Below are positions 11,211 to 47,993 of a stretch of DNA of 64,000 nt, piece by piece; position 1 is the stretch's first letter; every line of letters begins with the position of its first letter. Source of the DNA: Novosphingobium sp. 28-62-57 (GTDB taxonomy: Bacteria > Pseudomonadota > Alphaproteobacteria > Sphingomonadales > Sphingomonadaceae); NCBI GenBank assembly GCA_002256985.1, contig NCGO01000005.1, positions 1 through 64,000 on the forward strand. The letters are read 5' to 3'. A program made the translations under genes and the position numbers. The notes under the pieces were generated by a model. The model ran no database searches, was not told the origin of the DNA, and saw only the letters and a list, made by a program, of their open reading frames with translations.

Positions 11211-12242
11211 TCAGTCGCTGCTGATGTCTTGCGCCGGGGGCGTGAGCCCAGCCTTGATTTGCGCCTGATAGCGTAGCCGCGTTTCGATCTGTTCGAGCGC
11301 GACTTTGCCCCCGACACAGGCGTGGAGCGCGCGCGAGACTTCGACCAGGCGCGAGGCGATGAAGCCGATCAGGGCAAGGCCTGCGATCAGCGATTCGTCG
11401 CGGGCCGTCCCGGCAATGGCGAGCAGCACAAAGATGCCCAGGCCTCCGCCTGCCAGCGCCACGGCATCCATCACGCCCACCACGGTGGCGCGGCGGATGG
11501 CGATATCCGATGCCAGTTGCGCCCGCCAGGCAAGGCGGCGCTTGTCAGCCCGGCGCACGCGGCGGCGCGTGGCCAGCTCTTCATCGGATGGCACGCGCAA
11601 GCGTCGCATGACAAAGCGGGTCAACTGTCCACGCACCCGGCGCTGTTCGGTAATCCGGCCCGCCAGCAGGCGCGCCAGCCAAAGCAGCAGCGCGGTGGCG
11701 GCCAGCAATGGCAGCAGCCCTGTGGCCAGTTGCGGATGCTGGGCCAGCAGCAGCAGGCTGGTGGCCAGCGCGGCAACTGTGGCGGTGAGCAGCGCGGCAG
11801 GCCCCCGCGCCGCCCAGTTGCGCACCGCGGTAAGATCGCCGACGAAGGGCATCAACAGGCGCGATTCCTCTACCTGGCCCAGTGTGGGGATGGCGGCGGC
11901 AAACAGCTTTTCGCGCAGGCGCAGCACATAGGATTGGGCGAGGCGTTCGCCGAAATAGCGTTCGGCCAGCCCGGCTGCACCGGTCAGCAGCGCACTGCCC
12001 AGCAAGCCGCCCAGCAGCAGCGGCGACAGCGCATTGGCGGTGATGGCAGCGCCGACCAGCCCCGCCGATACGGTGGCTGTGCCTGCCTGCAACGCGCCGG
12101 TTCCCACCAGCGCAGCAAATTGCCACCGCCGCGCATCGGACAGCAGCGGCGGCAGGCGGCGGCGCCGGGGGCGGCGTTGGGCGGTGCCCTGTTCTGGTTG
12201 GGGCCTGCGTCGGCGCAGCAGGTCGATCAACTTCACCAGCAT
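11211..12242 (-). CDS. orphan ABC exporter transmembrane domain (no ATPase domain)
   Basis: This 343-residue membrane protein resembles the type-I ABC exporter membrane domain: hydrophobic segments at about 43-95, 145-190 and 250-290, and an intracellular-loop-like YFGERLAQSYVLRLREKLFAAAIPTL stretch. It ends without any nucleotide-binding domain, and none is encoded adjacent. The N terminus is very rich in Arg and Gln. AAGGAG sits almost against the ATG, so the GTG at 12236 may be the true start. An ECF-type promoter (12259-12284) lies directly upstream, back to back with the promoter of the hydroxylase gene. It may work with an ATPase encoded elsewhere, or be a membrane scaffold. Confidence 0.6.
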   Translation of the reverse strand: MLVKLIDLLRRRRPQPEQGTAQRRPRRRRLPPLLSDARRWQFAALVGTGALQAGTATVSAGLVGAAITANALSPLLLGGLLGSALLTGAAGLAERYFGERLAQSYVLRLREKLFAAAIPTLGQVEESRLLMPFVGDLTAVRNWAARGPAALLTATVAALATSLLLLAQHPQLATGLLPLLAATALLLWLARLLAGRITEQRRVRGQLTRFVMRRLRVPSDEELATRRRVRRADKRRLAWRAQLASDIAIRRATVVGVMDAVALAGGGLGIFVLLAIAGTARDESLIAGLALIGFIASRLVEVSRALHACVGGKVALEQIETRLRYQAQIKAGLTPPAQDISSD

Positions 12243-12258: not shown

Positions 12259-12284
12259 AACGGGGCGGGTGGCAGGATTATTCC
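12259..12284 (-). promoter_or_regulatory. ECF-sigma-type promoter for the orphan ABC membrane gene
   Basis: Reading the minus strand: GGAATA (12284-12279), 16 bases, CGTT (12262-12259), then AGG. The layout is identical to the sites upstream of the sigma-factor, protease, hydroxylase and NTPase genes in this window. Confidence 0.6.
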
Positions 12285-12292
12285 CGGCCTGC

Positions 12293-12318
12293 GGAATAAA
12301 GCGCCCGCGCGGCCCGTT
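12293..12318 (+). promoter_or_regulatory. ECF-sigma-type promoter for the aspartyl/asparaginyl hydroxylase gene
   Basis: GGAATA (12293-12298), 16 bases, CGTT (12315-12318), 35 bases before the ATG at 12353. It is divergent from the site at 12259-12284, giving a back-to-back promoter pair. Confidence 0.6.
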
Positions 12319-12352
12319 TGCAGGGCAGTTTTGCTGATGGGAGTGATGTGCC

Positions 12353-12949
12353 ATGCGCTTTTTCAAGTTGATCCAGAGCGGAATTGATCCGCAGCCTTTC
12401 CTTTCCGAAATCGCCGGGGTGGAAGGGGCGTGGGATGCCGCAACCGGACGCCAGGCCAAGATCGCGGTGCAGCGTGAGGCGCTGTCGATCCCGCTGCGCG
12501 GCGCGCGCCGCTCCGCCATGGCCGGGCGTGAAGTGCGCGATGTGCTGGAAAGCCGGTGGACGACCGGCTCGGCCAGCTATCCGGTGGCGCGGGCGTTTCT
12601 GGAACAGGCTGCAGAAGCGCTGGAGAGCCAGTTGGGCCGGGCTAAGATCGTGTGTCTGCCCGCGGGGCACCGCGTTTATCCGCATATCGACCGGGGCCGA
12701 TATTACGAAATGCACAATCGTTATCACGTGGTGCTGGTCTCGACACAAGGGTCGTGGCTGAAGGCTGCGGACGAGGAAGTGCGGATGCAGACCGGGCAAT
12801 GGTGGTGGTTCGACAACGATCAGATTCACGAAGCCCGCAACGAAGGCACGGCCGACCGCATCCACATGATCTTCGATCTGCTGCCCAACCACCGTCTTGA
12901 AGAAGCAAGAGCCGCGATGGGGGCCGAGGTGGAAGTAACACCTGCTTAG
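12353..12949 (+). CDS. aspartyl/asparaginyl beta-hydroxylase family 2-oxoglutarate oxygenase
   Basis: A 198-residue soluble cupin-fold protein with the family signatures PHIDRGRYYEMHNRYH (about 112-127; first metal His in PHID), GQWWWFDNDQIHEARNEG (about 147-164; second metal His in IHEARN) and DRIHMIFD (2-oxoglutarate-binding Arg). Members hydroxylate Asp or Asn side chains, free or in peptides, using Fe(II), O2 and 2-oxoglutarate. It has no signal peptide, so it is cytoplasmic. GGGAG precedes the ATG. It is monocistronic: an ECF-type promoter lies 35 bases upstream and a strong terminator follows. Its substrate is unknown; the Asp-rich exported protein of the same predicted regulon (18414-20180) is a candidate. 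Confidence 0.82.
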   Translation: MRFFKLIQSGIDPQPFLSEIAGVEGAWDAATGRQAKIAVQREALSIPLRGARRSAMAGREVRDVLESRWTTGSASYPVARAFLEQAAEALESQLGRAKIVCLPAGHRVYPHIDRGRYYEMHNRYHVVLVSTQGSWLKAADEEVRMQTGQWWWFDNDQIHEARNEGTADRIHMIFDLLPNHRLEEARAAMGAEVEVTPA

Positions 12950-12972
12950 GTTTGGGCCTGCGCCTGAGGATT

Positions 12973-13015
12973 GGCCTGCAGCCTTGCCAGATTTGGCCGG
13001 GTTGCAGGCCTTTTT
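12973..13015 (+). terminator. rho-independent terminator after hydroxylase gene
   Basis: GGCCTGCA (12973-12980) pairs with TGCAGGCC (13003-13010) and is followed by TTTTT, 24 bases after the hydroxylase stop codon. Confidence 0.8.
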
Positions 13016-13044
13016 CGTTGGTGGCTTGGCTCAGAAGCAGAAAA

Positions 13045-13261
13045 GCGGGTTCGCGCAGAGGCGCAGAGGAAGCAGAGATCGCAGAGAAGGTCGAATCGCG
13101 GCAAAGCCGCCGAAAAAATCTCCAGACGCTGCATTTGTCATGGCAAAACAGGCATGAATGACCCTGCGAGAAGCGGGGCATCAAGCTTTACGAGACGGCC
13201 TCGTCGCTAGTTTAACCTCTTTGCGATCCCTGCTTCCTCTGCGCCTCTGCGCGAAACCCCT
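13045..13261 (-). repeat. dispersed hairpin repeat R1, copy 1 (reverse orientation)
   Basis: About 217 bases bounded by imperfect inverted ends: GGGTTCGCGCAGAGGCGC at the left and its complement GCGCCTCTGCGCGAAACCCC at the right. The arms continue inward as AGGAAGCAGAGATCGCAGAG. The centre carries the family core (AACGCAGCGTCTGGATTT and GACGGCTTTGCCGC) in reverse. It starts 30 bases after a terminator. No open reading frame of note. Confidence 0.85.
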
Positions 13262-13429
13262 TCTTCTTTACCGGATCGGCAGCTCAAAAACTTCGCTCAG
13301 CCGATGAGCGCTTTTTATGCGCAGATGCCAAAACGACCTTTTTCATGATGTTTCAACAACAAAGCCAGCCACAGCACGATCCTGCCATGTGATGGCGGCG
13401 AAAAAATCGCAGAGGCTGATATTTTTTGC

Positions 13430-13455
13430 GGAATAACCCGCAGGCCTGCCCCGTT
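13430..13455 (+). promoter_or_regulatory. ECF-sigma-type promoter for the NTPase/hydrolase/porin genes
   Basis: GGAATA (13430-13435), 16 bases, CGTT (13452-13455), 34 bases before the ATG at 13489. Spacing is identical to the other four sites. Confidence 0.58.
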
Positions 13456-13488
13456 CGATCAGCAATACAGTTTCACACGGAGGCAAAC

Positions 13489-14583
13489 ATGATCTGCGAA
13501 GCAATCCCCCACTCGATCAACCCGACCCGCGCTGAACGGCTTCAGCTGCGTCTGGCGCAAGCCAAGCGCGCTTTCACGACACGCCATGTCGATCTTGCCA
13601 CAGCTGAGCGGCTGGTGCGCTCTGGCCGGGTGCCGGTGGCAGGCGATGTTGTGCTGGCCCGGGTGACCGCGATTGGCCAGCATGCCCGGATCGAAAACAT
13701 CCACGGCCGCCGCGGCCAGCTCTATGTCGGTGATGAAATCATCGTGGCCTATGGCAACCGCTATGCACCCGATCAGTTCGAAGCCTTTGTGCCGACCGAT
13801 CTGGAAGAGTGCGATCTGGTGGCAGGCGGCGGCGTGGCATCGCGGATGACCCGCAAGCACGCCGGGATGAAGAACCCCACGAAGATCGAAGTGATCGGCC
13901 TTTTGGCAGGCGAGAGTGGGCAGACCATCAATCTGAAGGACTTTGCCGTTCGGGCCGATGCACAGCCGCTGCGCCCGACCCGCGTGATTGCGGTGGTTGG
14001 CAGCTCGATGAATGCGGGCAAGACCACCACGGCGGGCGGCCTGGTCCACGGCCTGACCCGCGCAGGTTTCCGCGTGGGTGCGGCCAAGATCACCGGCACC
14101 GGATCGGGCGGAGATCTGTGGACGATGCGCGATGCCGGTGCGATCGAGGCGATCGACTTTACCGATGCCGGGCACGCCTCGACGTTTTGCGTGGATAGCG
14201 AGGGCCTGGCAGACATCTGCACCGGCCTGCTCGACAAACTGGCCCGGTCAGGCGCGGATATTGCCGTGGTGGAAATCGCCGACGGCCTGTTGCAGCCAGA
14301 AACCGCAGCGCTGGTGGAAATGGCGCAAGCGCAAGGCTGGTTTGACGGTTTCGTGTTTGCTGCAGCCGATGCGATGGGCTCGGCCTTTGGTGCCAACTGG
14401 CTGGCGCAACGCGGGATCGTGCCGCTGGCGCTGTCCGGTCTGGTCTCAGCCTCGCCGCTGGCAGCAGGGGAAGCGGCCCGCACGTGCGCGCTGCCGGTGG
14501 CAACGCTTGCTGAACTGCGCGATCCGGTTGCGGTGACCAAGATCGTGTTCCGCCAGGACATGCTGGTGGAAGAAGCGGCCTGA
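13489..14583 (+). CDS. P-loop NTPase of dethiobiotin-synthetase/MobB-like type, unknown function
   Basis: A 364-residue soluble protein. Residues about 1-160 form a predicted beta-rich N-terminal domain with no motif I recognise. Then RVIAVVGSSMNAGKTTTAGG gives a P-loop at about 165-184, followed by an Asp/Glu-containing AVVEIADG strand as in SIMIBI-class NTPases that transfer phosphate to small molecules. It may be related to the DUF1611 group, but I am not certain. GGAGG precedes ATG 13489. It is followed after 46 bases by an alpha/beta hydrolase and then a porin, so the three may form one unit reading an imported small molecule. The ECF-type promoter lies 34 bases upstream. Confidence 0.7.
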   Translation: MICEAIPHSINPTRAERLQLRLAQAKRAFTTRHVDLATAERLVRSGRVPVAGDVVLARVTAIGQHARIENIHGRRGQLYVGDEIIVAYGNRYAPDQFEAFVPTDLEECDLVAGGGVASRMTRKHAGMKNPTKIEVIGLLAGESGQTINLKDFAVRADAQPLRPTRVIAVVGSSMNAGKTTTAGGLVHGLTRAGFRVGAAKITGTGSGGDLWTMRDAGAIEAIDFTDAGHASTFCVDSEGLADICTGLLDKLARSGADIAVVEIADGLLQPETAALVEMAQAQGWFDGFVFAAADAMGSAFGANWLAQRGIVPLALSGLVSASPLAAGEAARTCALPVATLAELRDPVAVTKIVFRQDMLVEEAA

Positions 14584-14629
14584 GCCCAACGGCGTTTGTT
14601 GGACACGGTTTGGGCGGGAGAATTCTGTC

Positions 14630-15406
14630 ATGGTCACCACTGTTCCGCGGGTCGAATTCATTGCCTCGACCGCGCCGGAGATGCCCGATTGCTTCGTGTC
14701 CATCGTGGGGCCAGATGCCCCCACGATGGTCGCCATCCACGGGATCAGCCGGAATGCTGCTGAAATCGCGACCCGCTTTTCACAGCATCCGGCCTTTGCC
14801 GGGGTCAACGTGATTGCCCCGCTGTTTGATGCCGCGCGGTTTGGCAAATACCAGCAATTGCGCACGCTGAAGGAAGGGCAGACCGCTTCTGACGTCGCCC
14901 TGTTCTGCCTGCTGGACCATCTGGCCGCGCAACATGGCATCAATACGGGCAAAGTGGCAGTGTTCGGCTTTTCCGGCGGGGCGCAGATGGCGCACCGGCT
15001 GGCCATCTTGCGGCCATCCCGGATCCGCGCGGTCTGTGCCGCGGCGGCGGGCTGGTATCTGCTGCCGGTGCTGGACCTGCCCTATCCTTATGGACTGGGC
15101 CAGGGCTGCCCGGCGGCATGGGACCGCGATGCAACACTGCGCATTCCGATGACCGTGATCGTGGGCAGCCGCGATACCCGGGTTGATGAATCGGTGCGGC
15201 AGGACCGGCTGATCGTGGCCCATCAGGGCACAAACCGGCTGCGCCGCGCCCGCATCTGGACGCAAGTGATGCGTAAGCATGCTGCCCAGTGCGAAGATTC
15301 CGAAAGTATATCTCTGATAACATTGGAAAATGGCTCGCACGATTTCGGGCAATGTGCCCGCGAGACGGAATTGTTAAATTTTGTTTCTGCTGCATTACAT
15401 TTTTAA
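14630..15406 (+). CDS. alpha/beta hydrolase (small esterase/PHB-depolymerase-like)
   Basis: A 258-residue alpha/beta hydrolase with the oxyanion motif MVAIHGISRN at about 33-42, nucleophile elbow GFSGGAQ (Ser at about 114), an acid in GSRDTRVDE near 185, and the catalytic His in NGSHDFGQ near 240. No signal peptide is apparent, so it is likely cytoplasmic. Fold and spacing suit a small carboxylesterase or a depolymerase-type enzyme; the substrate is unknown. It lies between the P-loop NTPase gene and the porin gene on the same strand. Confidence 0.8.
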   Translation: MVTTVPRVEFIASTAPEMPDCFVSIVGPDAPTMVAIHGISRNAAEIATRFSQHPAFAGVNVIAPLFDAARFGKYQQLRTLKEGQTASDVALFCLLDHLAAQHGINTGKVAVFGFSGGAQMAHRLAILRPSRIRAVCAAAAGWYLLPVLDLPYPYGLGQGCPAAWDRDATLRIPMTVIVGSRDTRVDESVRQDRLIVAHQGTNRLRRARIWTQVMRKHAAQCEDSESISLITLENGSHDFGQCARETELLNFVSAALHF

Positions 15407-15453
15407 ACAGTAGCGCTTACTTCACATCACGGGTCACAGGGGGGAATTAGCGC

Positions 15454-16503
15454 ATGAGGAAGTCCGATTTACTGCGCGCACTGGCTTTGGGCAGTGCGTT
15501 TGTAGCCACACCGGCTTTGGCCGATCTGCCACAATTGCGATTGCAGGCTGGCGGGGTGGATATTCAGCTGACCGCCGGGGCCTCGGTGCAAGGGGCGGTT
15601 ATCGACGATGATGATACGGCCACCCCAACAACGGACGGCCAGTATGACCTTTTCGCGCGTCTGAATGCCGAATGGACATCGCCATCGGGCATCGTGGTCG
15701 GGGCCAACATTGAAGCCAACAACCGGGACCGTGAAACGGAATCGCTGGAAACGGGCGAAATCTACGGCTTTGTCGCGTCCGATTACGGGCGGCTTGAGGT
15801 GGGGCTGCAGGATGGCGCGGCCGATATGCTCGGCATGGCGGCACCGGTGATTGCGCTTGGCCAGATCCGTGGCGACTTTTCGCGCTATGCCGGGTCGATT
15901 GCGCTGCTGCGCACGCTCGATACGCAGGATTCGTTCAAGGTCCTGTACCTGTCGCCGCCGATCAAGGGCTTTCGGGCAGGCGCATCGTGGTCCCCCAAGT
16001 TCAGGCAAAACGCCGATGCGGCAAATCCGCGATCCCGCGTGATCGTGAAAGACGCAGTGGAGCTGGGCCTGCAATTCCAGCAGCCGGTGGGCGAATGGGT
16101 GCTGGGCGCCAGCGGTGGCTATGCCTTTGGCAATGCCGACCCGATCACCCAGCGCGCCGATCTGGCCAGCTGGAGCGTGGGCGCGCAGGCACGGCGCGGG
16201 CAGCTCAGGATTGGCGGGGCCTATGTGCGCCGGGGTGAAAGCAACCGGCTTGAGCGCGATTTCAACCAGTGGGAAGTGAACGGCGGCGTGGCCTGGGTGG
16301 AAGATAAATGGGGCGTTTCGGCCAGCAGCTCCTTCACCAAATCGAGTGAACGCAGCAACCGGCTGTTTGCGGTTGGCGGCTTCTATGCGCTCACCCCGAA
16401 TATCCAGATCCGCTCCGACCTGGTGCAGTTCCGCGAACGGCGCGTGGGCCGTGCCGCCGAAAATGGTGTGGTTGGCATTCTGGAACTGCAGCTTACGATC
16501 TGA
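15454..16503 (+). CDS. outer-membrane porin (Gram-negative porin family)
   Basis: A 349-residue protein with a signal peptide (MRKSDLLRALALGSAFVATPALA) and a beta-strand-rich mature part with typical general-porin segments (YGFVASDYGRLEVGLQDG, WSVGAQARRGQLRIGGAYVRR) and terminal barrel strand VGILELQLTI. It would form a trimeric diffusion channel. It is the last gene of the NTPase-hydrolase-porin set and is followed by a strong terminator. Combined with two cytoplasmic enzymes, it suggests uptake of a specific small ester or amide, but this is inference. Confidence 0.85.
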   Translation: MRKSDLLRALALGSAFVATPALADLPQLRLQAGGVDIQLTAGASVQGAVIDDDDTATPTTDGQYDLFARLNAEWTSPSGIVVGANIEANNRDRETESLETGEIYGFVASDYGRLEVGLQDGAADMLGMAAPVIALGQIRGDFSRYAGSIALLRTLDTQDSFKVLYLSPPIKGFRAGASWSPKFRQNADAANPRSRVIVKDAVELGLQFQQPVGEWVLGASGGYAFGNADPITQRADLASWSVGAQARRGQLRIGGAYVRRGESNRLERDFNQWEVNGGVAWVEDKWGVSASSSFTKSSERSNRLFAVGGFYALTPNIQIRSDLVQFRERRVGRAAENGVVGILELQLTI

Positions 16504-16537
16504 GCTGCCGCTGGGATCAGCGGGGGCGAAAACAGTT

Positions 16538-16570
16538 GGGGAGCAGGCCGGTGGCTTGCTCCCCTTTCTT
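16538..16570 (+). terminator. rho-independent terminator after porin gene
   Basis: GGGGAGCA (16538-16545), an 11-base loop, TGCTCCCC (16557-16564), then TTTCTT. Confidence 0.85.
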
Positions 16571-16628
16571 GTGCGGTTGGTTTTGACGGGATCGTGGAAG
16601 GGTGGGGGAGTGAAGTTCGAAAGAAGAA

Positions 16629-16817
16629 AAGGGTTTTCGCGCAGAGGCGCTGAGGAAGCAGAGACCGCATAGAGGTTGGGGCTACGGCGAAGCCGTTTCA
16701 CAAATCCCAACGCTGCGTTGTTCGCAAGGCAATCGGGATAGAGGGCCGTTCGGCCCTGCGCCTCATCTCAGCGGTCTCTGCTTCCTTTGCGCCTCTGCGC
16801 GAAACCCTTTCTCTTTT
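16629..16817 (-). repeat. dispersed hairpin repeat R1, copy 2 (reverse orientation)
   Basis: Ends AAAGGGTTTTCGCGCAGAGG and CCTTTGCGCCTCTGCGCGAA are inverted repeats that continue inward (GAAGCAGAGACCGC / GCGGTCTCTGCTTC). The core is in reverse. It lies in the convergent gap after the porin terminator, 59 bases downstream of it. Confidence 0.85.
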
Positions 16818-16856
16818 GAGCTTAAAGCGGGATGACGTTAAACTGACTCAGATCTC

Positions 16857-16920
16857 CGTTCGTGTCGAGCCCCTCGACATGCTCGGGGTAAACTTCGGGC
16901 AACGCCCGAAGTCGAGACAC
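16857..16920. repeat. palindromic repeat R2, copy 1
   Basis: Begins CCGTTCGTGTCGAGCCCCTC and ends CCCGAAGTCGAGACAC, with internal hairpins (CCCCTCGACATGCTCGGGG and CTTCGGGCAACGCCCGAAG). It is the near reverse complement of the second half of the R2 copy inside the hydratase gene at 60107-60209. It follows R1 copy 2 by 40 bases, so two mobile repeats share this gap. Confidence 0.8.
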
Positions 16921-16950
16921 TTTGCCGTTTGCGCAAGATCCAGAATCAAT

Positions 16951-17763
16951 TCACTGGCCCTTCAGCGCGGCCTTTTCGGCAGCGTCGGTCAGGGGATCGC
17001 CGGCGATCAGCTGATCGACCGCGGCAACCACCGCCGGGGCAGCATCACCGCCGGCGGTACGCATTTCGCCTGTGGGCTGCGAGCGCTGGCCAAAGGCTTC
17101 CAGCTGCCAATGCGCGCCTGCGCGGCAGGCCACGGCGTCGCTGGTCTGGCCTGCAGATTCGAGCGAGAACTGGCGGCATACGCGATCATCAGCGGTGCGG
17201 AAGGTCAGCGCGACGCTGGCCTTGCCAAGGCCATCCAATGCCTGCGCATCGCCGCTGCCCTTGGCCGACAGGAAGGTTTCGACCACGGGTGTCATCTGCA
17301 AACCATCGGCTGAGGCAAGCACCAGGGCGGGCGAAGTGCCGCCTTGCGGCCCATCTTGCAGAGCATTGCCCATGAACAGGCCCAGCGCCAGCGAAGCGGC
17401 CATTGCGCCATATTGGGCAAAGCCCCAGGCCATCGGCCGCTTTTTGCGGCTGGCTGCTGCAAAATCGATCACCTCTGCGGTGGCGACAGGGGCAGTGGCG
17501 ACTGGAGCAGCAATGGCAGGGTCGGCGATAGCCGTGAGGGGCACATCGGCCAGATGCTGCGGCACGGGTGCGGCAAGGATCGGTGCGAAGGCATCAATGA
17601 TGGCCTGATCGTGCGGGCTGACTTCAAGCTCGGCGAGCTGTTCGATGCGCGCGCAGACCGCAGGGTCGGCGTTGATCGCCGCCTCGATCAGGGCCATGTC
17701 GGCATCGGGCAAATCGGCGCGCAAGAAGGCGCGCAGCTGTTCGTCGGGGATCATCGCGGTCAT
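16951..17763 (-). CDS. membrane-anchored anti-sigma factor
   Basis: A 270-residue protein. Residues 1-70 are a helical cytoplasmic domain (IPDEQLRAFLRADLPDADMALIEAAI), followed by an Ala/Pro-rich linker, basic RKKRP, one membrane helix at about 111-131, and a periplasmic domain of about 135 residues with two Cys. It starts within the sigma gene's stop (4-base ATGA overlap), the standard arrangement for a cognate anti-sigma factor that holds an ECF sigma at the membrane until a periplasmic signal releases it. It lacks the HxxxCxxC zinc motif of ZAS-type anti-sigma factors. The periplasmic Cys pair could sense redox state (inference). Confidence 0.82.
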   Translation of the reverse strand: MTAMIPDEQLRAFLRADLPDADMALIEAAINADPAVCARIEQLAELEVSPHDQAIIDAFAPILAAPVPQHLADVPLTAIADPAIAAPVATAPVATAEVIDFAAASRKKRPMAWGFAQYGAMAASLALGLFMGNALQDGPQGGTSPALVLASADGLQMTPVVETFLSAKGSGDAQALDGLGKASVALTFRTADDRVCRQFSLESAGQTSDAVACRAGAHWQLEAFGQRSQPTGEMRTAGGDAAPAVVAAVDQLIAGDPLTDAAEKAALKGQ

Positions 17764-18266
17764 GCTGCAGCTCCCTGCGGACCGAGCAGTGCTGCCAAGG
17801 CAGCCTTGGCCCGGGAAAGACGGCTCATCACCGTGCCGATGGGAATATCAAGCATCTCAGACGCTTCGCGGTAGGAATAGCCTTCGAGGAGCACGATGCC
17901 AACGACGAGCCGCTGCTCTTCAGGCAATTGATCGACTGCGGCGCGGACCGCGCGCTGGGTTGAGCGGCGCTCAACCTCGGCTTGCCCATCGTCACCGGCA
18001 ATATCGAGCATCTCGGTAATGTCGTCATGCTGGGTGCGATTGCGCGCCAGCCTGCGATCATCGATCCAGGCGTTGCGGGCGATGGCGAAAACCCAGCTGT
18101 CGAGCCGGGTGCCATTCTGCCATTGGTCTACGTTGCGCATGGCCTTCTCCAGAGTTGCCTGCACCACATCATCGGCGTCAGACATGTTACCCGTAAGCAC
18201 TCTGGCGAACCGCCTCAGGCGGGGGATCAGCTCGATAAGCTGATGCCGCAAGGTTTCGTCGGTCAT
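17760..18266 (-). CDS. ECF family RNA polymerase sigma factor
   Basis: This 168-residue protein contains region 2 (DADDVVQATLEKAMRNVDQW followed by RLDSWVFAIARNAWIDDRR) and region 4 (LPEEQRLVVGIVLLEGYSYR followed by EASEMLDIPIGTVMSRLSRA), the two domains that define ECF sigma factors. It is coupled to the membrane anti-sigma gene. A promoter of the form GGAATA-N16-CGTT lies 25 bases before its start, and the same motif precedes four other genes in 12.2-18.4 kb, so I predict autoregulation and a local regulon. The promoter and partner differ from the general-stress EcfG system, which has a NepR anti-sigma and GGAAC promoters. Confidence 0.92.
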   Translation of the reverse strand: MTDETLRHQLIELIPRLRRFARVLTGNMSDADDVVQATLEKAMRNVDQWQNGTRLDSWVFAIARNAWIDDRRLARNRTQHDDITEMLDIAGDDGQAEVERRSTQRAVRAAVDQLPEEQRLVVGIVLLEGYSYREASEMLDIPIGTVMSRLSRAKAALAALLGPQGAAA

Positions 18267-18287
18267 CGGCGATGCTTACCTGCGGAG

Positions 18288-18313
18288 AACGGTTCATCAA
18301 TCTGAAATATTCC
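18288..18313 (-). promoter_or_regulatory. ECF-sigma-type promoter for the sigma/anti-sigma operon
   Basis: Minus strand GGGGAATA (GGAATA at 18313-18308), 16 bases, CGTT (18291-18288). It is divergent from the equivalent site for the protease gene at 18352-18377. Confidence 0.65.
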
Positions 18314-18351
18314 CCTCAGCATGAAAAAGTATCCTTCAATTTCGGAATTGG

Positions 18352-18377
18352 GGAATAACCTGCGTGTACGATCCGTC
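18352..18377 (+). promoter_or_regulatory. ECF-sigma-type promoter for the Asp-rich protease gene
   Basis: GGGGAATA (GGAATA at 18352-18357), 16 bases, CGTC (18374-18377), 37 bases before ATG 18414. Its position argues for the 18414 start rather than in-frame starts at or before 18321. Confidence 0.65.
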
Positions 18378-18413: not shown

Positions 18414-20180
18414 ATGCGTCTGATCCGATCTTTAGCTCCGGCGTTACTTGCCTGCACAGGCGTTGTCATAGCGCCTTTTGCAGGCCTGATCGCCTATGCA
18501 CAACCCGTGGTTGATGATGACGATGCCGATGATGCCGTCGATGATGACGACGATGTGCCCGATCCGGACGATGTATCGGGCCCTGCGCCCGACGTCGATG
18601 ATGGCGCCGACGACACTTTGGACAGTCCCGACGACGATGCCGGTGGTACGGATGATACCGCCCCAGGTTCAGATGATGCTGGCGCTGATGATGCCGGAGT
18701 TGGCGATGACGGAGCTGGCGATGATGCTGGTGGGTCGGACGATGCTGCGGCGGGGGCCGGCGATGATGCCGAAGATTCCGACGATGCGGATGATGCAGCA
18801 GGCGGCACGGCAGGCGCGAATAACGACGATGACGACGATGATGATGCCGCAGGCACTGCCGACGATGACGATGATGACGACGCAGCAGGCGGCACGGCGG
18901 GTTCGACCAACGACGACGACGATGATGATGATGACGACGCAAACGGTGACGATGACGACGACGATGGCCCGATGCGGCCTGCGGCCGGTGCGGATGACGA
19001 TGATGACGACGACGACGCCACTGATGAGCGCTTGAGCTATGATCTGGATGACGACGACGATGATGACGATGAGGGGCAAGTCCAGTTCATCGGGGCGGGC
19101 GAAGAGCCCGAGCGGCAGCGTGCGGCGCTGGATCGGGAGCAGGGCATTGGCACGGACCGGGAAGGTTTCCGCTATCGGCGGCACGAGTTTGTGGCGGCGG
19201 ACCTTGATGCCAAGGAACAGGCGGCACTGCGCACCAAAGGCTTTACCATCCTGCAATCCGAGCGGCTTGTGGGCACCGGTGGCACCATTCATCTGATCAA
19301 GGGGCCTGCGCGGCTATCGGACGCCGATGCCTTGAGCGCGATCGACGATCTGACCGATCCATCAAGCCTGAGCTTCAATCACCTGTTCGATTCCTCGTCT
19401 GGCGAGGTGCAAAAGGTAAAAGGCAAGGCTGTGCCCGCTCGCCCGGCCTGCGGGTGCCAGATCGGCATGATCGATACTGGCGTTGCCGCCAAGCTGCCGC
19501 TGTTCCGCCATGTGACGGTGGAGCAGCGCGCCTTCAACGGCACAGTGCCAGCGCCGGGCAACCATGGCACAGCGGTGGCCCACCGCTTTGCCGGAACCAC
19601 GCCGCTAAAGGGCCGACCCACACGCATCGTGGCGGCGGACATCTTTTCGGGCCCGCGTGCCAGCGCCGGATCGACCTTTGCGCTGGTCAAGGCGCTGGAC
19701 TGGATGGCCTCTCGCAATGTGGCGGTGATCAATGTCAGTCTGGCCGGGCCGCGCAATGCGGTGGTGGCATCCACGGTGGAACGGTTGGTCAAGAAGGGCC
19801 ACGCGATTGTGGCGGCAGCTGGCAATGATGGCCCGGCAGCGCCCCCGGTCTTTCCGGGCGCTTATACCGGTGTGATTGCCGTGACCGCCGTGGATACGAC
19901 GCAGAAGGTCTATCGCTATGCCAACCGGGGCAAATACGTGGACTTTTCAGCCGTGGGCGTGCGCGTGGAAACGATCAGCCCAAAAGGCGAAGTTACCGCG
20001 GCGACCGGCACATCCTTTGCAGCGCCGGTTGTGGCCACCCGCCTTGCGCGCGAATTGACTCGCCCTGATCCGGCAGCCGTCGCCCGCACGGTCACGCGGC
20101 TGGAAAAGGAAGCGCGCGATCTGGGCGAACCGGGCCGGGACACGGTGTTTGGCCATGGTCTGGTTGAGGAGCCACGCTGA
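18414..20180 (+). CDS. exported subtilisin-like serine protease (S8) with long Asp-rich N-terminal region
   Basis: A 588-residue protein. Residues 1-30 look like a signal peptide (MRLIRSLAPALLACTGVVIA). Residues about 34-232 are nearly half Asp, in runs of 5-9 broken by Gly, Ala, Thr and Ser. Residues about 235-345 form a linker or propeptide-like domain. The S8 catalytic domain then has Asp354 (MIDTG), His384 (NHGTAVA) and Ser534 (GTSFAAP), all intact. GAT and GAC alternate irregularly in the Asp tract, so it is not a simple slipped triplet repeat. It is exported to periplasm or surface. The next gene starts inside its stop (TGATG), so a Lys-rich secreted partner is co-translated. An ECF-type promoter precedes it. 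Confidence 0.85.
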   Translation: MRLIRSLAPALLACTGVVIAPFAGLIAYAQPVVDDDDADDAVDDDDDVPDPDDVSGPAPDVDDGADDTLDSPDDDAGGTDDTAPGSDDAGADDAGVGDDGAGDDAGGSDDAAAGAGDDAEDSDDADDAAGGTAGANNDDDDDDDAAGTADDDDDDDAAGGTAGSTNDDDDDDDDDANGDDDDDDGPMRPAAGADDDDDDDDATDERLSYDLDDDDDDDDEGQVQFIGAGEEPERQRAALDREQGIGTDREGFRYRRHEFVAADLDAKEQAALRTKGFTILQSERLVGTGGTIHLIKGPARLSDADALSAIDDLTDPSSLSFNHLFDSSSGEVQKVKGKAVPARPACGCQIGMIDTGVAAKLPLFRHVTVEQRAFNGTVPAPGNHGTAVAHRFAGTTPLKGRPTRIVAADIFSGPRASAGSTFALVKALDWMASRNVAVINVSLAGPRNAVVASTVERLVKKGHAIVAAAGNDGPAAPPVFPGAYTGVIAVTAVDTTQKVYRYANRGKYVDFSAVGVRVETISPKGEVTAATGTSFAAPVVATRLARELTRPDPAAVARTVTRLEKEARDLGEPGRDTVFGHGLVEEPR

Positions 20181-21178
20181 TGGCAACGATCCTGCTGGTC
20201 CTGGCGGCGTTGAGCATGACAGCCGCGACGTCGGCCACCTCCACGGTCAAGACGAAGGCGAAGACTGTGGCTGCGCCCAAAACTGTGACCACAGCAAAGC
20301 CTGCGGCTACAGCAAAGCCTGCGGCTACGCCTAAGCCTGCGGCCACAGCGAAGTCTGTAACTCCGGTAAAGTCTGCGGTTCCGGCAAAGTCTGAGGTAAC
20401 GCTCAAAGCTGCGCCCGTGCCCAAAACGGCCACCGCATCCAAGCCTGCGACCACGGCAAAACCTGTCGTCATTCCGAAGCCTACTGTCACGCCCAAGCCT
20501 GCAGTCGCAGCCAAGACCATGGTTGCGACCAAGACGATGCCCGCGCCCAAGACTTTGGCCACGACCGCGTCTATCCCGCTGCCGCGTTACCGGGTGAACG
20601 ATGCGTTTGTGTTTTCTGATGGGCGGGTGGAGCGCGTTGTCAAAGTTTCGCGCGATGAGATCACCTGGGCAGGGCTGACCGGATCGCCCTATGTCCGCAG
20701 CCGCAACTTCGTTTTGCCGGTGTCGAACTGGTCGGTCGGGCGGGGATTGGGGCGGCGGCAGTTCTTTGGATCGGCGCAAGACCTCTGGCCCGTGGCAAAG
20801 CCGCGTTCTGTGCGGTTCCGGGTGGTGGCTGAAACCAAGGCAAAGGCGACATCGCCATGGCAGCGCGAAGTATCGATGTGGACCTGCCAGTCGCTGAAGC
20901 CACGGGTGGTGCGCATCGCCTTGGGCACCTACAACACCATTCCGTTCACCTGCGACCGCTATTCTGCCACCAACATGCGCCCGATCGAGCGGCTGGAGTG
21001 GGACTATGCGCCCGAGCTTGGCCATTACGTGCGGCGATCTGCGATCCAGTACCTGCGCGGCACGCGTCGCACGGTTGATCTGGTGGCAACGCTATCTGGC
21101 CCAGCGGCCAGCAAGCGGCGGCTTCAGGCCCTGTCGCGCAGTGCCCGGCGGGGTGAGCTGCCAATGCGATGGGAGTGA
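20180..21178 (+). CDS. secreted Lys/Pro/Ala-rich repeat protein with globular C-terminal domain, unknown function
   Basis: This 332-residue protein has a signal peptide (MATILLVLAALSMTAATSA). It continues with a low-complexity basic region at about 22-133 built of [AT]KPAA[TP]-like units, with about 19 Lys and a single acidic residue. A domain of about 195 residues follows (starting PRYRVNDAFVFSDGRVERVV) with a Cys pair (TWTCQS-like and FTCDRY). No family is recognised. It overlaps the stop of the Asp-rich protease gene by one base, so the two are translationally coupled. The strongly basic arm beside a strongly acidic partner suggests an electrostatic complex outside the cytoplasm; this is inference. 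The C-terminal domain may be a cell-wall or protein-binding module. Confidence 0.7.
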   Translation: MATILLVLAALSMTAATSATSTVKTKAKTVAAPKTVTTAKPAATAKPAATPKPAATAKSVTPVKSAVPAKSEVTLKAAPVPKTATASKPATTAKPVVIPKPTVTPKPAVAAKTMVATKTMPAPKTLATTASIPLPRYRVNDAFVFSDGRVERVVKVSRDEITWAGLTGSPYVRSRNFVLPVSNWSVGRGLGRRQFFGSAQDLWPVAKPRSVRFRVVAETKAKATSPWQREVSMWTCQSLKPRVVRIALGTYNTIPFTCDRYSATNMRPIERLEWDYAPELGHYVRRSAIQYLRGTRRTVDLVATLSGPAASKRRLQALSRSARRGELPMRWE

Positions 21179-47828: not shown

Positions 47829-47993
47829 TGTTCGCGCAGAGGCGCAGAGGCGCAGAGGAGATACGCAGGGCCGCAGGGCCATTTATCTCGGTTGCCTTGC
47901 GAAAAACGCAGCCTTTGGATTTCTGAGACGGCTTTGCCGCGAAACCAACCCTACTCCGCGCCTCTGCGCCTCTGCGCGAGACCCCTTTTCCGC
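47821..47993 (+). repeat. dispersed hairpin repeat R1, copy 4 (forward)
   Basis: Left GTGTTCGCGCAGAGGCGCAG and right CCTCTGCGCCTCTGCGCGAG (convergent gap). Core AACGCAGCCTTTGGATTTCT followed by GAGACGGCTTTGCCGC, closely matching the reversed core of copy 1. It separates the HNH gene from the TolC-like gene, which ends at 48000. Confidence 0.85.

What the first reader, a model, noticed from the sequence alone, without database searches (positions are those of the whole stretch)
12259..18377. Five matching ECF-sigma promoters define a predicted local regulon
GGAATA, exactly 16 bases, then CGTT (or CGTC once) occurs at 12284-12259 (minus), 12293-12318 (plus), 13430-13455 (plus), 18313-18288 (minus) and 18352-18377 (plus). 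Each is 20-40 bases before a start codon. They include two back-to-back pairs and the sigma gene's own promoter. No site with this layout was found elsewhere in the window by eye. The predicted regulon is the orphan ABC membrane domain, Asp/Asn hydroxylase, P-loop NTPase/hydrolase/porin set, sigma/anti-sigma, and Asp-rich protease with its Lys-rich partner. That combination does not match a pathway I know.
Basis: partly seen in the sequence, partly recalled or inferred. Interest (0 to 1): 0.9.

Follow-up and report, generated by a model that had tools for sequence, protein, structure and literature searches.

The report
Conserved ECF26-type sigma regulon and promoters
Five matching DNA switches around a stress-type sigma gene in a bacterium of the Novosphingobium kind are real and recur in relatives; they mark a gene set, probably for remodelling the cell surface, run by a sigma factor of a known but poorly understood group.

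Summary
All five GGAATA-N16-CGTY sites are at the stated coordinates and nowhere else in the window (0.10 expected). The genome has ten hits: these five, four inside reading frames, and one before a glycosyltransferase/PgaA-like exporter operon. In 11 related loci the motif peaks only at spacer 16 (36 hits, at most 2 at any other); in eight Novosphingobium-type loci only at 15 (33 hits). The general-stress motif GGAAC shows no peak. Sites recur before NTPase, sigma, hydroxylase and protease genes. A site before the NTPase gene goes with a similar sigma gene: 22 of 22 genomes, against 13 of 54 without such a site. A related sigma clade carries another motif. The kind is known: group ECF26, consensus GGAATA, divergent serine protease, as in S. 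meliloti RpoE6 (PMC6180224). New here: the conserved target set, the sixth target, an ABC domain without its ATPase, and an invariant cysteine pair in the anti-sigma factor. Dependence on the sigma is unmeasured; the function, envelope remodelling, is inferred.

The parts
12259..12284 (-). ECF26-type promoter 1, before the ABC membrane-domain gene
   Evidence: 16 nt to ATG
12293..12318 (+). ECF26-type promoter 2, before the Asp/Asn hydroxylase gene; exact site in 5 of 5 clade-A loci where this gene was found, the window included
13430..13455 (+). ECF26-type promoter 3, before the NTPase-hydrolase-porin operon; exact site in 9 of 10 clade-A loci, the window included
18288..18313 (-). ECF26-type promoter 4, autoregulatory, before sigma/anti-sigma; exact site in 9 of 10 clade-A loci with the sigma gene
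18352..18377 (+). ECF26-type promoter 5 (CGTC), before the S8 protease; exact in 2 and one mismatch in 4 of 10 clade-A loci listed
11211..12242 (-). ABC exporter membrane domain without an ATPase domain, 343 aa
   Evidence: PF00664 below cut-off; a distant relative is a full TMD+NBD exporter,
12353..12949 (+). aspartyl/asparaginyl beta-hydroxylase-family protein, 198 aa
   Evidence: PF05118, E 1.5e-15
13489..14583 (+). P-loop NTPase, MobB/DUF1611/dethiobiotin-synthetase-like, with an N-terminal beta domain
   Evidence: Pfam matches below cut-off
14630..15406 (+). alpha/beta hydrolase
   Evidence: best family hits below cut-offs; conserved operon position
15454..16503 (+). outer-membrane porin
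   Evidence: PF13609, E 2.3e-24
16951..17763 (-). anti-sigma factor: helical N-terminal domain, transmembrane segment, periplasmic domain with invariant Cys196 and Cys213
   Evidence: no Pfam match
17760..18266 (-). ECF sigma factor, RpoE6/ECF26-like, 168 aa
18414..20180 (+). secreted S8 (subtilisin-type) protease with Asp-rich N-terminal region
   Evidence: PF00082, E 8e-25; sequence
20180..21178 (+). partner protein: Lys/Ala/Pro-rich N-terminus and a conserved C-terminal domain of about 190 aa with no Pfam or NCBIfam match

Best explanation
The locus is an autoregulated ECF26-type sigma regulon. Supported by sequence: the sigma gene, its anti-sigma gene and the divergent S8 protease form a conserved module, and GGAATA-N16-CGTY is the promoter shared by sigma, protease, hydroxylase, the NTPase-hydrolase-porin operon and the relocated ABC domain, plus a distant GT2 glycosyltransferase/PgaA-like exporter operon. 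[quoted passage not shown] an envelope or redox signal reaching its periplasmic domain, which has an invariant cysteine pair, releases it; sigma-RNA polymerase then fires all sites together, amplifies itself, and remodels the envelope through a secreted protease with an acidic tail, a porin, and in this genome polysaccharide synthesis and export.
For: Exact sites, chance 0.10. Genome-wide background level apart from this locus and the GT2 site. Spacer control: 36 at 16 against at most 2 at any other k in clade A, 33 at 15 against at most 2 in clade B, no peak for GGAAC. Exact sites in clade A: NTPase 9 of 10, sigma 9 of 10, hydroxylase 5 of 5; in clade B: NTPase 7 of 8, sigma 7 of 7, protease 7 of 7, hydroxylase 1 of 1. 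The ABC gene, inside the NTPase operon in L131-L139, stands apart in the window and there has its own site. Site before NTPase and sigma gene co-occur: 22 of 22 genomes against 13 of 54 (Fisher p 2e-10, rows not independent). Autoregulatory motif splits by sigma clade: 28 GGAATA and 20 GATGAAAC rows on opposite sides of one branch. S. meliloti RpoE6 has the same three-gene module, and promoters mapped for its targets read GGAATA-N15-CGTT (PMC6180224). GT2 was found in 2 of 397 family genomes, both with this sigma and a site before GT2.
Against: No expression data. The protease site is less conserved in clade A: exact in 2 and one mismatch in 4 of the 10 loci listed, none within one mismatch in the other 4 (1000 nt were scanned there, so a one-mismatch hit is weak). 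The separating branch in the sigma tree has support 91/89, under the 95/80 mark; 32 of 80 rows had neither motif, so the tool counts 8 and 10 label changes, not 1. 13 of 54 genomes have a similar sigma but no exact site before the NTPase, and 23 of 54 at the looser E 1e-20. One of the 22 (L137) has lost the sigma at this locus and keeps another elsewhere. The closest NTPase relative, L130, has the operon with no site and no sigma at E 1e-20, so the operon can exist without it. The envelope role rests on annotation only.
Confidence: 0.87

Rival explanations
1. The sites belong to the general stress response sigma EcfG (ECF15), whose promoter GGAAC-N16-CGTT looks similar, and the local sigma reads something else.
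For: PMC7083833 (passages) gives GGAAC-N16-CGTT for Sphingopyxis EcfG. PMC6180224 (section 7) reports that 27 of 40 RpoE6 targets overlap the RpoE2 (ECF15) regulon in S. meliloti. The genome has a second sigma of 36% identity on the same contig as a PhyR-like partial hit (the names EcfG and PhyR are my reading).
Against: All five sites have T, not C, at the fifth position; the AAC triplet deviated in only 3 of 79 EcfG -35 boxes (PMC7083833 passage). GGAAC-Nk-CGTY shows no spacer peak in any of the three locus sets. The motif follows the local sigma's clade.
Confidence: 0.06
2. The S8 protease is the site-1 protease of the anti-sigma factor, so that the main product of the regulon is its own signal-transduction protease (positive feedback), not an envelope effector. 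This competes with the inferred function, not with the regulon.
For: The protease is a very constant neighbour: found by homology at 20 of the 26 other sigma loci, some of them cut short, and at RpoE6 of S. meliloti.
Against: No cleavage data. Its acidic tail, its partner protein and its co-regulation with porin and hydrolase genes fit an effector equally well.
Confidence: 0.35
3. The regulon answers sulfite, as for the ECF26 sigmas RpoE1 and RpoE4 of S. meliloti.
For: Same ECF group; RpoE1/RpoE4 respond to sulfite-generating compounds (PMC3511301, abstract and passages); the anti-sigma cysteine pair could react with sulfite (inference).
Against: [quoted passage not shown] The family matches of the local targets include no sulfite oxidase.
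Confidence: 0.05
4. The five matches are chance or were spread by a repeat element.
For: A repeat family with 86-nt and 52-nt copies lies between some of these genes.
Against: Chance 0.10; the repeat copies do not cover the sites; the sites recur in other genera.
Confidence: 0.005

Closest known systems
RpoE6-EcfR6-SMa0142 of Sinorhizobium meliloti pSymA (group ECF26)
   Same: Sigma 48% identical over 155 residues, anti-sigma and divergent S8 protease homologous; the protease has a run of six Asp after its signal-like start; promoters with GGAATA-N15-CGTT mapped for the protease, ecfR6 and SMa0148 (PMC6180224, Table 1 passage; spacers counted from the printed sequences).
   Different: Spacer 15, not 16; rpoE6's own mapped promoter is not of this motif; none of the NTPase, ABC, hydrolase, porin, hydroxylase, GT2 or Lys-rich queries matched at E 0.01 in the 20-kb region searched; one site there precedes an (SSSN)n-repeat protein.
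RpoE1/RpoE4 of S. meliloti and the related Starkeya sigma (ECF26, sulfite response)
   Same: ECF26 sigma with an anti-sigma partner (PMC3511301, PMC6527743, passages).
   Different: Targets are sulfite-oxidising enzymes; in the passages I saw no divergent S8 protease is named for them.
RloABC of Pseudomonas aeruginosa
   Same: Relatives of this regulon (L080/G320, L131, L133, L134) carry a site-preceded operon whose G320 copies match 7TM_transglut (PF14402) and ATPgrasp_ST (PF14397), resembling RloB and RloC (PMC12239564 abstract and passages).
   Different: The G320 protein has the 7TM part, 255 aa, without the inactive transglutaminase part; no RloA homologue was looked for; the window's genome has no ATP-grasp match at 1e-20.
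EcfG (ECF15) general stress response
   Same: Similar two-block promoter.
   Different: GGAAC rather than GGAATA; the sigma that I take for EcfG in this genome is 36% identical.

Membership tests
ECF26 sigma group | Assignment by the ECF classification models (ECFfinder/ECF Hub) | not testable with these tools
   No such models here; the one assigned member compared is RpoE6, 47.7% identity, E 3e-43.
ECF26 sigma group | Promoter with -35 GGAATA and -10 containing GT | tested here: met
   consensus quoted from PMC6180224 section 7.
ECF26 sigma group | Anti-sigma gene downstream, product with N-terminal domain, transmembrane domain and periplasmic C-terminal domain | tested here: met
   Gene order; model (helix 117-136 of low confidence; N- and C-terminal domains well predicted). 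COG5662 membership not tested.
ECF26 sigma group | Divergent serine protease (RpoE6-type arrangement; not shared by all ECF26 members) | tested here: met
   S8 protease 18414-20180, PF00082; also in relatives.
ECF26 sigma group | Groups with ECF26 references in a tree | tested here: inconclusive
   RpoE6 falls on the GGAATA side, but it was the only named reference sigma, and inner supports are low to moderate.
EcfG/ECF15 regulon | -35 GGAAC | tested here: not met
   All five sites GGAATA; no GGAAC spacer peak.
Aspartyl/asparaginyl beta-hydroxylase family | Match to PF05118 above gathering score | tested here: met
   57.8 bits against 22.6; substrate unknown.
ABC exporter | Transmembrane and ATPase domains | tested here: not met
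   No ATPase domain in the window protein; membrane domain only below cut-off.

The most novel reading that the evidence does not exclude
The ECF26 regulon of alphaproteobacteria drives a surface system built on secreted low-complexity acidic polypeptides. Asp-rich tails of the protease in the window's clade, 'RGADDGPGD' repeat proteins in Novosphingobium-type relatives and Ser/Asp/Gly-rich inserts in barrels would be its substrates or products, modified by the co-regulated hydroxylase (beta-hydroxy-aspartate, metal binding) or by ATP-grasp enzymes, and released in answer to a thiol-redox signal read by the anti-sigma cysteine pair.
Probability: 0.1. Interest if true: 0.8.

Novelty: new variant of a known kind. 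Interest (0 to 1): 0.52.

Why it matters
ECF26 is called poorly characterized in print (PMC3511301), and microarray data failed to define a role for RpoE6, the closest studied relative (PMC6180224). A target set found from Sphingomonadales to Caulobacterales and Rhizobiales loci, with uniform promoters, gives a short list of genes to test. The two sigma clades with different autoregulatory motifs on the same protease/anti-sigma module offer a natural case of promoter-specificity change. The invariant cysteine pair gives a testable idea of the signal.

Tried and rejected
EcfG control was tested through the GGAAC spacer scan and rejected. A looser genome pattern in the wrong register (GGAAT-N17-CCGTY) gave 12 hits against 8 for its control and missed the sites because I had miscounted; it was discarded. 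The ten-hit list was checked: four of the five hits outside the locus lie inside reading frames of over 100 aa (L001, L002, L004, L010). Plasmid searches with the NTPase and the protease gave 8 and 179 records; only S. meliloti pSymA was followed. Sequence searches of solved structures gave no confident match for the Lys-rich partner's domain, the anti-sigma factor or the hydroxylase, and only weak P-loop hits for the NTPase. Fold search of the NTPase model gave dethiobiotin synthetases and SRP GTPases; of the anti-sigma model nothing at E 0.001. The idea that an acidic protease tail marks every GGAATA locus fails: L095 lacks it and L094 has only a weak one. The idea that the GT2 operon is common to the clade was not borne out: 0 of 10 genomes (L130-L139) at 1e-60, a call without a positive control, and 2 of 397 in the family at 1e-100. 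The idea that the ABC gene is a full exporter in every relative outside the window's clade is not borne out: in L144, L152 and L167 the reading frame is long enough (547-576 aa) but my Walker A pattern did not match.
Full report
Observation. Site ends lie 16, 34, 33, 21 and 36 nt before the start codons of the ABC membrane domain, the Asp/Asn hydroxylase, the NTPase, the sigma factor and the S8 protease. In the 4.1-Mb genome there are 10 hits, with 4 for the reversed control pattern. Of the five outside the locus, only the one on contig C3 (34122-34147, minus) shares the C before CGTT that all five local sites have; the other four lie inside reading frames.

Sixth target. Downstream of the C3 site is a GT2 glycosyltransferase gene, followed by a TPR/beta-barrel gene with a PgaA-barrel match (28.2 bits, cut-off 27). 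The site ends 195 nt before the likely ATG, farther than at the local genes. In genome G320, whose sigma is the closest found in the family search (70%), an orthologous GT2 (79%) with its own site sits beside the sigma locus. Another site in G320 precedes a gene that reads like a mannose-1-phosphate guanylyltransferase (my reading of the sequence; no family search). GT2 was found in only 2 of 397 family genomes at 1e-100, these two.

Conservation. An alignment of the NTPase was used to fetch the best 80 of 252 loci from named genomes. In the loci nearest the window's type (the window, L131-L139 and L080, 11 in all; L130, which has neither a site nor a sigma, was left out), GGAATA-Nk-CGTY occurs 36 times at k=16 and at most twice at any other k from 8 to 25. 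In eight Novosphingobium/Sphingobium-type loci it occurs 33 times at k=15 and at most twice elsewhere. In 13 further loci, two of which have none, the peaks are 22 at 15 and 10 at 16, at most 3 elsewhere. GGAAC-Nk-CGTY shows no peak in any set. Exact sites in the first set precede NTPase in 9 of 10, sigma in 9 of 10 (L080 has one mismatch; L137 has no sigma gene at the locus), hydroxylase in 5 of 5, and protease in 2 of the 10 listed, with one mismatch (CGTA) in 4 more. In the second set they precede NTPase in 7 of 8, sigma in 7 of 7, protease in 7 of 7 and hydroxylase in 1 of 1. In L138 the site stands before a further gene just upstream of the NTPase. In L131, L133, L134 and L080 a site also stands at the 5' end of a barrel-7TM-ATP-grasp operon; in L134 and L080 it overlaps the frame as called, so the true start must lie downstream. 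The ABC domain sits in the NTPase operon in L131-L139 with no exact site of its own; in the window it stands apart and has one.

Link to the sigma factor. Among the 80 NTPase loci, 4 had too little upstream sequence; 22 had an exact site within 320 nt and 54 had none. A sigma gene with E at most 2e-28 (threshold chosen after seeing the list) was present in 22 of 22 genomes with a site and 13 of 54 without; at the looser E 1e-20 it is 22 of 22 and 23 of 54. Fisher p is 2e-10 for the first table; the genomes are related, so p overstates. Two of the 13 (L138, L143) have their sites elsewhere in the same gene group. In a tree of 80 sigma proteins, labelled by the motif in the 220 nt upstream, 28 GGAATA rows and 20 GATGAAAC rows fall on opposite sides of one branch; 32 rows had neither motif and lie on both sides; branch support 91/89, and the tool warns of long branches. 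The second motif, GATGAAAC-N13-CGTY, shows its own spacer peak (22 hits, next 5 at 9).

What kind it is. PMC6180224 (section 7 read; Table 1 seen as passages) assigns S. [quoted passage not shown] On pSymA the sigma is 48% identical to ours, next to homologous anti-sigma and S8 genes, and the promoters mapped for protease, ecfR6 and SMa0148 read GGAATA-N15-CGTT. No functional role was found there. [quoted passage not shown] Formal ECF classification could not be run here.

The parts. The anti-sigma factor has two invariant cysteines (196 and 213) and an invariant tryptophan (219) in the 17 sequences that I chose to align, S. meliloti included. The model places the cysteines on neighbouring strands 195-203 and 206-215, so a disulfide is plausible (inference; mean pLDDT 78, transmembrane part poor). 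The ABC membrane domain is 343 aa with no ATPase domain. In the Nitrosomonas locus L171 the homologue is a full exporter (PF00664 and PF00005), and my Walker A pattern matches in L143, L156, L161, L163, L171 and L178, but not in the long frames of L144, L152 and L167. So the 'orphan' domain looks like an exporter that lost its engine in this clade, perhaps after a gradual decay. The NTPase is a SIMIBI-type P-loop protein by fold (model pLDDT 94; dethiobiotin synthetases and SRP GTPases; the class name is recalled). NTPase followed by ABC and hydrolase occurs in gamma- and betaproteobacterial loci, and NTPase-ABC in cyanobacteria, so the operon is probably older than its ECF26 control. Between the first 25 residues and the catalytic core, the protease is 31-46% Asp in 10 of 11 distinct clade-A relatives (L080, L086, L131-L136, L138, L139; in L137 the script misread the start); other GGAATA loci have Glu/Arg-rich or short Asp-Gly tails, and L095 has none.

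Mechanism. Supported by sequence: shared promoters, their recurrence, co-occurrence with the sigma. Inferred: release of sigma from the membrane anti-sigma factor by a periplasmic signal, self-amplification, and envelope remodelling by protease, porin, hydrolase and, in this genome, polysaccharide synthesis. The signal is unknown; a thiol-redox or osmotic/envelope signal is my best guess, the latter because relatives put RloB/RloC-like genes, tied to hypo-osmotic tolerance and biofilm in P. aeruginosa (PMC12239564, abstract and passages), under the same sites.

Origin. The window's genome is of the genus Novosphingobium: its same-genus genome G033 has the sigma at C31:130227-130700, the same place as in the genome of L144, a record of Novosphingobium sp. 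B 225 with a contig of 188,066 bases. Yet its sigma groups with Erythrobacteraceae rows (91/90), not with the Novosphingobium rows, and it has spacer 16, not 15. Horizontal transfer of the module is a likely reading, not tested further.

Novelty search. Nine paper searches were run. I found no description of this target set in their listings or in the papers opened; the library lacks most subscription journals.

Noticed in passing
L027, L029-L032, L035-L038, L040, L041, L047-L049, L162: A sister sigma clade, on an anti-sigma/S8 module like this one, has a nearly palindromic GATGAAAC...CGTY motif before sigma in 13 of these 15 loci; spacer peak at 13.
   Followed up: partly
L099 9002(-), L141 8695(-), L143 4961(-), L144 8499(-): GGAATA sites precede small secreted-looking proteins with repeats such as RRGRGADDGPGD; no family search was made.
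   Followed up: partly
L140-L146 at about 8.5-8.8 kb (L142 4.8 kb; L143 5.0 kb): Sites precede frames that read as outer-membrane barrels with long Ser/Gly/Asp-rich inserts.
   Followed up: no
L210 10387-10770: On S. meliloti pSymA a GGAATA-N15-CGTT site precedes a secreted-looking protein of (SSSN)n repeats; possibly SMa0146.
   Followed up: no
L137 14034-14900: In Erythrobacter colymbi the anti-sigma fragment abuts the acidic part of the protease gene: the sigma gene and the promoters between appear deleted, while the two sites beside the NTPase gene remain (could be an assembly error).
   Followed up: partly
L131 6166-6191(-): A site resembling the G320 GT2 promoter stands after the ATP-grasp gene although no GT2 was found in that genome (no positive control); perhaps a leftover promoter.
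   Followed up: partly
L158 9820(+): A Desulfobacula genome has a GGAATA-N15-CGTT site before its NTPase gene and a related sigma elsewhere (E 4.6e-34).
   Followed up: no
window 13035-13269 and 16621-16817: A repeat element with inverted arms (CGCAGAGGCGCAGAGGAAG) flanks the NTPase-porin operon; a fifth, weaker match lies at 47843.
   Followed up: partly
window 20180-21178; L163 13627-14286: Of the partner proteins read only the window's has the long Lys-rich N-terminus; its C-terminal domain of about 190 aa aligns in 11 relatives (one, L163, a weak gammaproteobacterial match) and has no Pfam match.
   Followed up: partly
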